Part shown: piece by piece, positions 16,438 through 23,074 of the stretch | Layout: each line of letters starts with the position of its first letter | Numbering within the stretch: position 1 is the stretch's first letter | Virus record (IMG/VR): IMGVR_UViG_3300008266_000033 | Span: 62,001 to 126,000 of that record | DNA from: a virus | Direction: 5' to 3' (one strand) | Length of the DNA stretch: 64,000 bases | Made by a program: the position numbers and the translations under genes | Notes under the pieces: model-generated | What the model was told of the DNA's origin: nothing | The model's input: only the letters and a program-made list of their open reading frames with translations | Database searches by the model: none

Positions 16438-16641
16438 TTATTGAACAATTGGGCTCCTGATATGTCCCCCCTTTTTCTTACCGCCTGCTTTTACAGCTAA
16501 TGGAGAAGGAATATTTCCATTATCAGTATCAACTGTTCGTTGAACAATTGGGCTCCTGATATGTCCCCCCTTTTTCTTACCGCCTGCTTTTTCAGTTAAT
16601 GGAGTATCTTTATTTAAAAATTTGTCTTCTAAACTAGCCAT
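16438..16641 (-). CDS. Small basic protein with a duplicated AGGKKKGGHIRSPIVQ segment
   Basis: A 67-residue protein containing two nearly identical copies of a Lys/Gly-rich peptide (KAGGKKKGGHIRSPIVQ), the second ending exactly at the stop codon. The duplication is also visible in DNA (16441-16506 and 16540-16605). No known domain is apparent. It lies between the tape measure gene and the tube-initiator-like gene, with the late-type motif 18 nt upstream. It could be a small virion or assembly protein; no function is assigned. Confidence 0.6.
   Translation of the reverse strand: MASLEDKFLNKDTPLTEKAGGKKKGGHIRSPIVQRTVDTDNGNIPSPLAVKAGGKKKGGHIRSPIVQ
16441..16506 (-). repeat. Direct repeat, copy 1
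   Basis: About 66 bp, matching 16540-16605 at a 99-bp offset with only a few mismatches near one end. It encodes the C-terminal copy of the basic peptide of the 67-residue protein. Confidence 0.85.
16540..16605 (-). repeat. Direct repeat, copy 2
   Basis: Partner of 16441-16506. The first ~50 bases are identical. It encodes the N-terminal copy of the basic peptide. Confidence 0.85.
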
Positions 16642-19296: not shown

Positions 19297-19323
19297 AAAA
19301 AGGTATCACTTTTTTGATACCTT
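19297..19323 (-). terminator. Intrinsic terminator overlapping the end of the gp51-like gene
   Basis: A 9-bp perfect stem (19300-19308 with 19315-19323), a 6-nt loop, then TTTTTG on the minus strand. The hairpin contains the TGA stop of the 60-residue reading frame. Confidence 0.75.
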
Positions 19324-19488
19324 TGTTGTATATGTTGGTTTTTCTTTAGGGATGATGTTATCTGCTTTAGCCTGTTTTAAAACAGATATTGATTTATTTA
19401 CTACATCTTCGGTGTCGTCCTTAGAATACTTCGTTTTATAATGTTGATATATTTTATTATAAGTGAATTTTCTTAACCAAATGGGCAT
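19306..19488 (-). CDS. gp51-like tail assembly protein, C-terminal part; probably reached by frameshift
   Basis: From its only ATG this frame gives 60 residues (MPIWLRKFTYNKIYQHY...). The same frame stays open upstream to 19623, overlapping the 3' end of the gp26-like gene, and encodes a convincing protein segment: GLTPEYRDFLF, then EIHEIVFWGQGGYNFETVYN running straight into MPIWLRKF. That layout (Ile/His, aromatic, Gly-Gly-F, short loop, MPxxLR) looks like the gp51-type baseplate/tail assembly family. No ATG, GTG or TTG lies in the extra part. A shift at the T7 run 19585-19591 would yield a 341-residue gp26-gp51 fusion. Free translation from 19488 is the less attractive alternative. Confidence 0.7.
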   Translation of the reverse strand: MPIWLRKFTYNKIYQHYKTKYSKDDTEDVVNKSISVLKQAKADNIIPKEKPTYTTKVSKK

Positions 19489-19570
19489 GTTATAAACTGT
19501 TTCAAAATTATAACCTCCCTGTCCCCAAAAAACTATTTCATGTATTTCGGAAAATAAAAAATCTCTATAC

Positions 19571-20332
19571 TCAGGCGTCAGGCCAAAAAAAGTTAAGAGT
19601 AATTGGTACGTTGATGTCCTCCTCTACACCGCTTTCGAATTGATAAGTATATTTTAAGTCTATTCCTGGGGATATTGTAGCTACATATTCTCTAAATGCT
19701 TTGGCATCTCGAGCTAATAAACCATTGTTAATAAAATTATTTATAGTTTCTGGTGAACTATCTCCATTAACTGAGATTATCATGTGTCTAAGTCTAGTAA
19801 CTAGTTCAAAATTATCTTTAGGATTAATTTTCTTTAATCCTTTGATTTCTTTATCTATATTTTGTTCATCTTTATTAGTTAATAACTTAAATGTTATTTT
19901 ATTATTTGTATTAGGAAGTTTAAAACTAAATTCATTTCTTCCTGGTGAAACTAAATTATCAACAACAAGAGATTTTTCTTTTAGTTGAGTTAAATCTACA
20001 GTAACTTTCTCTGTAGAACTATTAGCATAAGAATAATAACTAAAAGTATAGTCTTTTCCATATCCTAAAATTCTAGCAGATAACATTAAAAGATCTTTAT
20101 CACCTATCAAAAGATCATCATAATTGAATTTAGTCACCACCATTGATTGGAGTAATTTATCAATTACTATCCCCTGTTCAATATAGTTTCTGTTAGTTAA
20201 AATATCTTCTTCCCTAGCAGTCATGTATTTCATTTCTACTTTTCCGGATGCTAAAGGAGAATCTGGTGGGTAAAGTAAACCCTTAGAGGGTAATTCAATT
20301 ATTTCCGTTGGGAAATTAAAATTTGATTCCAT
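19571..20332 (-). CDS. gp26-like baseplate hub / tail assembly protein
   Basis: A 253-residue protein of the T4 baseplate family typified by gp26. Diagnostic segments are IIELPSKGLLYPPDSPL and VEMKYMTAREEDILTN near the N-terminus. In T4-like phages it is followed by gp51, as here. The last codons run over a T7 stretch (AAC TTT TTT TGG) before the TGA stop at 19571, which offers a frameshift site into the downstream frame. Gene order tube, this gene, gp51-like, tape measure equals the tube-G-GT-tape measure order of tail assembly chaperones in lambda-like phages. It has its own late-type motif after the tube gene's terminator. Confidence 0.85.
   Translation of the reverse strand: MESNFNFPTEIIELPSKGLLYPPDSPLASGKVEMKYMTAREEDILTNRNYIEQGIVIDKLLQSMVVTKFNYDDLLIGDKDLLMLSARILGYGKDYTFSYYSYANSSTEKVTVDLTQLKEKSLVVDNLVSPGRNEFSFKLPNTNNKITFKLLTNKDEQNIDKEIKGLKKINPKDNFELVTRLRHMIISVNGDSSPETINNFINNGLLARDAKAFREYVATISPGIDLKYTYQFESGVEEDINVPITLNFFWPDA
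19582..19594 (-). other. Candidate +1/-2 programmed ribosomal frameshift site
   Basis: Coding strand AACTTTTTTTGGCC. The zero frame (gp26-like) reads AAC TTT TTT TGG and meets TGA three codons later. The +1 frame reads ACT TTT TTT GGC and continues for 92 codons to 19306. Phe-tRNA can re-pair perfectly on the T7 run in either a +1 or a -2 slip. No in-frame start codon exists between 19623 and 19488. Confidence 0.6.
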
Positions 20333-20438: not shown

Positions 20439-20927
20439 TTAGAAGTTTAGTACACAGTAATCAGGTTGAACTGTCATAGTAATACTCTGAGCAGCAGATT
20501 CATTATCATAGCTATATTCACCAAAGTTAGCTTCAGTGATTAAAGCTCCTTTAATAATCCATTCAGAAACAATATCTCCTACAGGACCTAATACGTTAAA
20601 AGTAAGATCTCTTTTATAGAAGTCCGAATACCCATCTCTACCTGTTACAGATTCATGATGTAAACGTACCCATTCCATTACTGCTTGAGCACCAGATGGT
20701 GTAATAGGATCAAATAGTGTAAAAGTAATTGTACCCCATTTAGATTTACCCTTAACAAATCTTTGAATGTTTATATGGTTAAGAGCAATTGATTCTTGAG
20801 TTAATGTAATAGCACTTACTCCTTTAATTATATATGAAGGAATACCTCCAATATACATAACAAATCTGTTTTGCTGTTTGGGTTCAAATGGAGTAAAAAA
20901 TATTTCGTTTGGATTTAAAATTGCCAT
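20439..20927 (-). CDS. Tail tube protein (gp19-like)
   Basis: A 162-residue protein with the tail tube layout of T4 gp19: N-terminal FFTPFEPKQQNRFVMYI, central ITLTQESIALNHINIQRFVKG and WGTITFTLFDPI, then WVRLHHESVTGRDGYSDFYK, and the C-terminal SITMTVQPDYCVL. It polymerises into the inner tube of the contractile tail. It is flanked on both sides by terminators and preceded by a late-type motif, so it is likely transcribed as its own unit at high level. Confidence 0.93.
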   Translation of the reverse strand: MAILNPNEIFFTPFEPKQQNRFVMYIGGIPSYIIKGVSAITLTQESIALNHINIQRFVKGKSKWGTITFTLFDPITPSGAQAVMEWVRLHHESVTGRDGYSDFYKRDLTFNVLGPVGDIVSEWIIKGALITEANFGEYSYDNESAAQSITMTVQPDYCVLNF

Positions 20928-21004: not shown

Positions 21005-23074
21005 TTAATCAAAAGTTACTCCAGTTGGTGTGATGTTGAATGTTAAGTAAATAAATTCAGCTGTTTTAGTTGGTTGTAAATAAATTTGACCAACTAACTG
21101 ATTTCTATCTATCACATCTGGTGTATTGTTTGAATCATCCATTACTATTCTAAAAGCATATAATCCTTGACGTTGTTGAACACTTGCTAAATATGGATCA
21201 ACTTGAGATAAGAAACTATTTCTTGTAGCTATAGTATTTTGTTCAAACACTAATGTATTAGCTACTTGAGAAATATATGATTTAAGAGCAATTAATAAAC
21301 GACGAACATTTACTCTATCAAGTGCTGAGGCTTTTAATTGTAAGGTTTTCTGACCATATACCACAATACCTTGTCCTGGGAATGTTGCAATTGGATTTAC
21401 TTTATTTTGGTATAAGTTATCACGAGTTGATTGAGATAATTTTTGTTCAACTCTAATTACAGTTGATAAACCACCTCTATTAATGCCTGCAGGAGCAAAC
21501 CAAGGTTCAGCAATGTAGTCATTATTTGAATACACACCAGCAATCATAGTTGAAGCAGGTACCCAAACATTTTTACCTGTTGCTGGGTCAACTATTTGAC
21601 ACCATGGCCAATAAGCAGCAGCATATGATGTATCTCTAGATGATGCTTGTGAAATAACTTCTTGAGCAGTTGAAGCATATCCAACTAAATCTACTACATA
21701 TATATTATCTCCTCTTTCTTGAGTATTATTTATAATTGTAGATATTTTGGAAGTATGAGTTGTGAATTCATCTATTAATCCTGGGGTGAATAATATGTTG
21801 AATCTATAATCATCTTGATTTGATAATAGATTAATCATATTAGTATAATTAGCTGCTACTAATCCTTGAGAATTATTTTCTTCAATTTCATTCCAAAATT
21901 TAGTCCCTGCTTTTACATCACCCGTAGCTCCAGTAAATGAACCACTTTGAGCAATAGGAAGTGAAGCTGTATATTGAGATTTAAATTGTCCATTATTGTC
22001 AAAATAATTTGGAGTTAATTGATTAACTGATTTAACTCTTATATATCTACTTCCATTTGGATAGGAACCACTTAATTCAATTTGATTAGTTGAAGGATTG
22101 TAATTATAAATATAATCACCTATTACTTTAGAAATATAATTAGAAGTAAAAGGATCTAATGATACAGTAAAAGTTTCTAATACTGTTGGGGAATTAGTAA
22201 CATCATCTCCTTGTCTAATTAATATTGTAAATTGACCTGAAGAAGATACTGGGTTAATGATTTGCCATCTTATGTTATTAACTGAGCCGCTTACTAAAGC
22301 ACCAGCACTATCTTCACTTCCTGAGCTATTCATAATAACTCCTTCAGAGATAGTTTCTAATACAAATGATGGTTGATTTGTTCCTCCTGTAAACGATACT
22401 GTAGTACTTCCTGAAATAAATGAATATGTATTTCCTGTTAATCCGTTTACTCCAGTAGTTGAGTTAAATAAAATTCCTGTAGAAGCAGAAACACTTGAGG
22501 TAATGTATTGTAAAGAAGTATTATAAGGAGATACAGAAGCACTAGCATTAAATGCGGCAACTACAGCTGTTGTTGTGTTTGCAGCAGATGAACCAGATGA
22601 TACATAAATTGCAGTACTAGTATTAGTTGGTAATGAACTTCCTGTTACAGTAAATGTAATTCCTCTAACACTAAATGATGCTGAACCAACTGAAGCAGCA
22701 CCGGTATGAAGATAAGTAAATTCTGCATTAGCTGATGCTGTAGTAGCTAAAATATTACTATTAATAGTAGTAGAAATTGCAGGAGAATATGAACCAGAAA
22801 CTACTCTTGCTACTAATAATGATAAGCCATTATTATTAAAATAATTATAAGCGGCAATAGAAGTAAAATAAGAATACGTATCACTTCCGCTTAATAATAC
22901 ATCCCCAAATTTACTAACATAGTCACTATAAGAAGTTACTATAGTAGGTAATTCAACAGGTCCTTTAACTGTAGGTCCGATAATAGCGGCTCCTACAGTT
23001 ACTGGTTGTTGTCTGATAAAAGACTGGTCGTTTTCTATTGCTAAAACACCAGGTGATAATAAAACGTTAGCCAT
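21005..23074 (-). CDS. Tail sheath protein (gp18-like)
   Basis: A 689-residue contractile sheath protein. The N-terminus has LSPGVLAIENDQSFIRQQPVTVGAAIIGPT, trimmed here to the recognisable SPGV...GxxxGP pattern. The C-terminal domain holds the conserved sheath segments FPGQGIVVYGQKTL, RVNVRRLLIALKSYI and LAFRIVMDDSNNT-like strands. The middle (about 100-300) is Ser/Thr/Gly-rich and probably forms surface-exposed insert domains. It lies immediately upstream of the tube gene, as in T4, with its own terminator and late-type motif. Confidence 0.94.
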   Translation of the reverse strand: MANVLLSPGVLAIENDQSFIRQQPVTVGAAIIGPTVKGPVELPTIVTSYSDYVSKFGDVLLSGSDTYSYFTSIAAYNYFNNNGLSLLVARVVSGSYSPAISTTINSNILATTASANAEFTYLHTGAASVGSASFSVRGITFTVTGSSLPTNTSTAIYVSSGSSAANTTTAVVAAFNASASVSPYNTSLQYITSSVSASTGILFNSTTGVNGLTGNTYSFISGSTTVSFTGGTNQPSFVLETISEGVIMNSSGSEDSAGALVSGSVNNIRWQIINPVSSSGQFTILIRQGDDVTNSPTVLETFTVSLDPFTSNYISKVIGDYIYNYNPSTNQIELSGSYPNGSRYIRVKSVNQLTPNYFDNNGQFKSQYTASLPIAQSGSFTGATGDVKAGTKFWNEIEENNSQGLVAANYTNMINLLSNQDDYRFNILFTPGLIDEFTTHTSKISTIINNTQERGDNIYVVDLVGYASTAQEVISQASSRDTSYAAAYWPWCQIVDPATGKNVWVPASTMIAGVYSNNDYIAEPWFAPAGINRGGLSTVIRVEQKLSQSTRDNLYQNKVNPIATFPGQGIVVYGQKTLQLKASALDRVNVRRLLIALKSYISQVANTLVFEQNTIATRNSFLSQVDPYLASVQQRQGLYAFRIVMDDSNNTPDVIDRNQLVGQIYLQPTKTAEFIYLTFNITPTGVTFD

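What the first reader, a model, noticed from the sequence alone, without database searches (positions are those of the whole stretch)
19306..20332. Probable programmed +1 (or -2) ribosomal frameshift between gp26-like and gp51-like genes
Seen: the gp26-like frame ends AAC TTT TTT TGG CCT GAC GCC TGA. The overlapping +1 frame is open from 19623 to 19306, with no ATG, GTG or TTG before 19488, yet the region 19584-19489 encodes a coherent segment (LTPEYRDFLF, FWGQGGYNFETVY) continuous with MPIWLRKF. A slip on the T7 run 19585-19591 gives a 341-residue fusion. Known: lambda-like and Mu-like phages make the tail assembly chaperone fusion by a slip just upstream of the tape measure gene. This gene pair sits between the tube and tape measure genes in the same way. 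Inference: gp26/gp51 of this T4-like phage is a frameshifted chaperone pair, an arrangement that I do not know to be described for T4-type tails.
Basis: partly seen in the sequence, partly recalled or inferred. Interest (0 to 1): 0.87.

Follow-up and report, generated by a model that had tools for sequence, protein, structure and literature searches.

The report
Frameshifted tail assembly chaperone, +1 type
This phage very probably makes a helper protein for tail building in a short and a long form by having ribosomes skip one letter at a fixed spot; the trick is known in phages, including T4-like ones, but here the slip is forward by one at a strongly conserved site that databases do not annotate.

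Summary
Observation confirmed. The PF12322 (T4 gp26-like) gene at 19571-20332(-) ends AAC TTT TTT TGG CCT GAC GCC TGA. The +1 frame is open 19623-19308 without a start codon before 19488, and encodes a conserved domain that begins at the slip. Of 83 sequences compared, 79 keep the junction (64 distinct proteins). The 15 bases around it differ by 0.025 per site between pairs, against 0.47-0.50 in the flanks, and codon phase switches from frame 0 to +1 there. Variants TTT CTT TGG and TTC TTT TGG speak for +1 re-pairing on YUU_U, not -2 and not polymerase slippage on a T run. Distant PF12322 relatives also change frame at this place: -1 on U_UUU_UUC in cyanophages and several T4-like phages, +1 at UUU_C in Bacillus phage SP-15 and a Streptococcus phage. 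T4 itself has split the pair into gene 26 (short) and gene 51 (long). The +1 YUU_UGG_CCU signal, the changes of direction within one orthologous gene and the losses of the shift (L111, L116) were not found described. No experiment shows the fusion protein here.

The parts
19571..20332 (-). TAC-N (short form), gp26-like, 253 aa, frame 0
   Evidence: ORF; PF12322 E 1e-7 over cut-off, phrog_150 E 2e-14; AlphaFold model pLDDT 91.9 whose BFVD hits include the gp26-type proteins of SP-15, ACP17, VH7D and Aeromonas phage 25
19580..19591 (-). Frameshift core TTT TTT TGG CCT; P-site TTT 19588-19586, A-site TGG 19585-19583, T19585 skipped in the +1 reading
   Evidence: Near-invariant in relatives
19571..19573 (-). 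Frame-0 stop TGA; its position and identity vary between relatives
19306..19584 (-). TAC-C segment in the +1 frame: GLTPEYRDFLFSEIHEIVFWGQGGYNFETVYNMPIWLRKF...KVSKK, 92 aa plus stop
   Evidence: translation; conserved in 59 distinct relatives; model: helix 5-21, loop, helices 28-32 and 36-75
19306..20332 (-). Predicted 341-aa fusion TAC-NC made by a +1 slip
   Evidence: aligned over its full length with 30 relatives, mean column identity 58%
20439..20927 (-). Upstream gene: tail tube protein (phrog_4542)
   Evidence: 58% identical to the gene at the same place in Flavobacterium phage immuto
16677..19271 (-). Downstream gene: tape measure protein, 864 aa
   Evidence: BLASTP E 8e-36 to the annotated tape measure protein of immuto
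21005..23074 (-). Tail sheath protein
   Evidence: PF04984/PF17482, phrog_23

Best explanation
The locus is a tail assembly chaperone gene of the gp26 (PF12322) family, read in two ways. Most ribosomes finish the 253-aa short form (TAC-N). A fraction, with tRNA-Phe on UUU in the P site and UGG waiting in the A site, let that tRNA re-pair one base forward (UUU to UUU), continue at GGC, and make the 341-aa long form (TAC-NC) with a helical C-terminal domain. By analogy with lambda gpG/gpGT, the N domain coats the tape measure protein and the rare C domain recruits tail tube subunits. Shown here: frame structure, its conservation, the phase switch, the codon constraints, the family and the gene order. 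Inferred: that the shift happens, its efficiency, and the chaperone roles.
For: 79 of 83 first-scan sequences keep the site; the other four run off the contig or have a broken frame upstream. Core conservation and phase switch. TAC-C starts exactly at the slip, and no start codon in its frame is conserved. Variants TTT CTT TGG, TTC TTT TGG and CTT TTT TGG keep a YUU_U tetramer that allows +1 re-pairing. Wider PF12322 relatives change frame at the same place: U_UUU_UUC in 81 of 81 cyanophage-type loci and in most of the isolates examined; UUU_C in SP-15 and GXN1. One PF12322 gene and one TAC-C in the window's 128-kb record. Gene order tube - TAC - tape measure. Literature on TACs.
Against: No protein or ribosome-profiling evidence. 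No conserved RNA structure and no fixed adjacent stop codon, so the stimulator is unknown. In L111 and L116, close relatives of immuto, the C domain lies in its own ORF and the shift is lost. About half of the relatives have some start codon upstream of the slip in the +1 ORF, though not at a conserved place.
Confidence: 0.9

Rival explanations
1. -2 frameshift on the T7 run, as in Mu-like phages, giving the same +1 frame with one more Phe.
For: T7 run in most members.
Against: TTT CTT TGG (5 distinct) and TTC TTT TGG (9 distinct) keep the domain and the frame but would force mismatched -2 re-pairing; GXN1 TTC TTT CGT likewise.
Confidence: 0.04
2. Transcriptional slippage: RNA polymerase adds or drops U on the T run.
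For: T7 homopolymer in most members.
Against: Variants with T3-C-T3 or only T4 still need and keep the frame change; the conserved unit runs into TGGCCT, which polymerase slippage does not need.
Confidence: 0.03
3. The C domain is made as a separate protein (internal start at ATG 19488, or reinitiation after the frame-0 stop).
For: Annotated as a separate small ORF in immuto, SP-15 and cyanophages; L111/L116 really have a separate ORF; Vibrio phage K474 has a TAATG stop-start overlap.
Against: The conserved +1 sequence starts 32 codons before ATG 19488, at the slip; no conserved start codon; stop position varies by several codons.
Confidence: 0.05
4. Sequencing or assembly error at a homopolymer.
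For: T7 runs are error-prone (general knowledge).
Against: Same junction in dozens of distinct contigs and in isolate genomes, also where the run is interrupted.
Confidence: 0.005

Closest known systems
TAC genes of T4-like phages (gp26/gp51; Vladimirov, Gautam & Davidson 2022, Virology 566:9-15; PF12322, phrog_150, phrog_634)
   Different: +1 at YUU_UGG instead of -1 at U_UUU_UUC; the C domain is too diverged for a direct match to T4 gp51. The paper itself was not readable here.
Lambda G/GT and the related tail chaperone frameshifts of other long-tailed phages (Xu, Hendrix & Duda 2004; reviewed in PMC5009743)
   Different: No sequence similarity tested or found; lambda shifts -1. PMC5009743 lists archaeal myovirus HSTV-2 as a likely +1 case.
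prfB (RF2) CUU_UGA_C and influenza PA-X UUU_CGU +1 sites
   Same: +1 re-pairing of a P-site YUU tRNA; GXN1 TTC TTT CGT carries the PA-X tetramer (PMC3498833 title; prfB from own knowledge).
   Different: Sense UGG instead of stop UGA; no fixed in-frame stop is part of the signal; no RNA structure seen.
Phage 0305phi8-36 two-gene chaperone gp143/gp144 (PMC2147016)
   Same: Short and long forms as separate paralogous genes, like T4 26/51.
   Different: The window phage has one gene and a frameshift.

Membership tests
PF12322 / gp26-type TAC-N | Sequence match over curated cut-off | tested here: met
   32.3 bits vs 24.5; phrog_150 2e-14; fold matches to gp26-type proteins in BFVD
Frameshifted tail assembly chaperone (G/GT type) | Located between tail tube and tape measure genes | tested here: met
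Frameshifted tail assembly chaperone (G/GT type) | Second ORF in another frame overlapping the 3' end of the first, with a conserved slip site | tested here: met
Frameshifted tail assembly chaperone (G/GT type) | Long form made at low ratio; both forms absent from virions; binding to tape measure and tube proteins | not testable with these tools
   needs experiment
T4-like TAC with -1 heptamer X_XXY_YYZ | -1 slippery heptamer and open -1 frame | tested here: not met
   In the window the -1 frame is open only from 4 nt upstream to 38 nt downstream of the frame-0 stop
T4 gp51 C-terminal domain (TAC-C) | Homology of the +1 segment | tested here: inconclusive
   Direct: none (E 0.14-0.39). Via intermediates: Microcystis-type C domain vs cyanophage C domain prob 93.6%; cyanophage vs T4 gp51 C-term 90.6%; reversed controls 0.1-0.2%

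The most novel reading that the evidence does not exclude
A large, unannotated clade of aquatic, probably mostly Bacteroidota-infecting myophages uses a bacterial +1 frameshift signal, YUU_UGG_CCU (A-site UGG, rarely UAU, UAC or UUC), that needs no stop codon or RNA structure; within one orthologous gene the direction of the programmed shift has switched between -1 and +1 more than once while the place of the shift was kept, and some lineages have dropped it for two separate ORFs.
Probability: 0.55. Interest if true: 0.62.

Novelty: new variant of a known kind. Interest (0 to 1): 0.5.

Why it matters
Tail assembly chaperones set up the tube on the tape measure and are often missed in annotation because their long form exists only through a frameshift. 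A review of 2016 still listed T4 as the exception (PMC5009743); the paper of 2022 placed the genes in T4-like phages. This locus extends the case to a large +1 group and shows one gene in which direction, slip codon and even the need for a shift have changed, so that the requirements for +1 slippage in bacteria can be compared on natural variants. The lack of a fixed stop codon and of RNA structure makes the stimulator a concrete open question.

Tried and rejected
RNA structure downstream: none (z 0.26; no consensus pairs on 34 sequences). Solved structures: no match by sequence or fold. Pfam/PHROG hit for the C segment: none. Direct homology of the C segment with T4 gp51: not significant. T4 genes 26/51 as a frameshift pair: rejected, divergent genes, gene 26 ends directly at gene 25. 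Vladimirov 2022 could not be read; its content is taken from its title and from citing papers, and from memory where so marked. tRNAs in the window: none. Profile comparison of the window-type N domain directly with T4 gp26 or gp51 gave nothing; the family link rests on the Pfam/PHROG profiles and the predicted fold.

Full report
OBSERVATION. The minus-strand ORF 20332-19571 ends AAC TTT TTT TGG CCT GAC GCC TGA. The +1 frame is open from 19623 to the stop at 19308-19306, its first ATG/GTG/TTG is at 19488, and it encodes GLTPEYRDFLFSEIHEIVFWGQGGYNFETVYNMPIWLRKF... from the slip on. A +1 slip gives 341 residues.

RELATIVES. A first scan of IMG/VR and two hits from the phage collection gave 83 sequences with the window; 79 keep the junction, with 64 distinct proteins. 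Two of the remaining four run off the contig; L008 and L077 have a frame broken upstream, and L008 still contains the motif. Named relatives are Flavobacterium phage immuto (TTT CTT TGG CCT) and Microcystis phage Mel-JY01 (TTT TTT TGG CCT); their records annotate no fusion. A second scan from Mel-JY01 gave, with Mel-JY01 itself, 81 loci, 78 with TTT TTT TGG CCT and single CTT TTT TGG, TTT TTT TAC and TTT TTT TAT forms; a third, from a 484-kb phage, gave 14 loci with TTC TTT TGG CCT. Six contigs of bacterial genome bins hold the C domain, three of them Flavobacteriales by title; four keep TTT TTT TGG CCT and two have TTT TTT TTC CCT. Loci of different scans may overlap and are not independent.

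CONSTRAINT. Over 61 distinct junctions the core TTT YTT TGG CCT GA is nearly invariant while upstream frame-0 third positions mostly carry 0.1-0.3 bits. Mean pairwise difference is 0.025 per site in the 15-nt core, 0.50 upstream and 0.47 downstream; the fastest-changing codon position is frame-0 position 3 upstream and +1 position 3 downstream. At the site Pro is CCT 63/64 (46% elsewhere) and the +1 Gly codon is GGC 63/64 (8% of Gly elsewhere). The frame-0 stop moves by several codons and varies in identity, so it is not the signal. Part of the core constraint may be dual coding; the near-fixed CCT, with only a few frame-0 codons left to translate, points to a role at the mRNA level (inference).

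DIRECTION. TTT CTT TGG and TTC TTT TGG keep the same frame change and the C domain. For both, P-site re-pairing one base forward (YUU to UUU) is good, re-pairing two bases back is mismatched, and the T run is too short or interrupted for polymerase slippage. +1 ribosomal slippage on YUU_U is therefore the best reading.

DISTANT FAMILY. The short form is PF12322 (T4_baseplate, gp26) and phrog_150; its model (pLDDT 91.9) has BFVD matches to the gp26-type proteins of SP-15, ACP17, VH7D and Aeromonas phage 25, and none in the PDB. Cyanophages and several T4-like isolates end the same gene with NNT TTT TTC, a U_UUU_UUC heptamer (pf16: U_UUU_UUU), and continue in the -1 frame into a conserved ~57-aa segment, annotated in cyanophages as 'gp51'; 81 of 81 cyanophage-type loci keep the heptamer. 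Bacillus phage SP-15 and Streptococcus phage GXN1 have UUU_C and a +1 continuation; Listeria phage LIS04 has TTT TTT AGT with a +1 continuation; a 595-kb phage and its relatives have a -1 continuation. On a tree of the short form the direction of shift needs about three changes, with weak support at the deepest forks and long branches for the T4 genes.

T4. Genes 26 and 51 are divergent. PF12322 covers gp51 1-201 (E 3.9e-52) and its remainder matches the cyanophage C segment. So gp26 is a short form and gp51 a long form, made from two genes. This is the published conclusion of Vladimirov et al. 2022 as given by its title and citing papers. Sullivan et al. 2010 had already seen that cyanophage gp51 lacks the first ~200 residues. 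From memory, the abstract of the 2022 paper also says that frameshifting appears conserved in several T4-like groups.

LOSSES. In L111 and L116, nested beside immuto on the tree, the C domain follows the stop in its own ORF with a new N-terminal stretch; in Vibrio phage K474 the heptamer is absent and a TAATG overlap is present.

MECHANISM. Shown: frames, conservation, family, order tube - TAC - tape measure, a single PF12322 gene and a single C domain in the 128-kb record, which may be incomplete. Inferred: slippage during slow decoding of UGG, low yield of the long form, and the lambda-like division of labour. The C domain is predicted helical. No RNA structure was found.

VERDICT. Real, well supported, and of a known kind. 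New here, as far as I could find in the papers held, are the +1 YUU_UGG_CCU signal in a large clade, the changes of direction at one orthologous place, and the lineages that lost the shift.

Noticed in passing
L111:2205-2330, L116: Immuto-like relatives in which the frameshift is lost and the C domain sits in its own ORF directly after the stop, with a new N-terminal stretch.
   Followed up: partly
L095 (Vibrio phage K474) around 2700-2905: Slippery heptamer replaced by CTT TTT GCG TAATG: stop-start overlap, probably translational coupling.
   Followed up: no
L085, L086, L088 (SP-15, LIS04, GXN1): Isolated Gram-positive myophages with an unannotated +1 fusion at UUU_C or UUU_A; GXN1 carries UUU_CGU, the tetramer of influenza PA-X.
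   Followed up: partly
L087, L122-L124: Very large phage group with a -1 continuation and a frame-0 tail of about 20 codons after the slip, longer than in all others seen.
   Followed up: no
window 16438-16641 (-): Small ORF downstream of the tape measure gene with a repeated stretch AGGKKKGGHIRSPIVQ.
   Followed up: no
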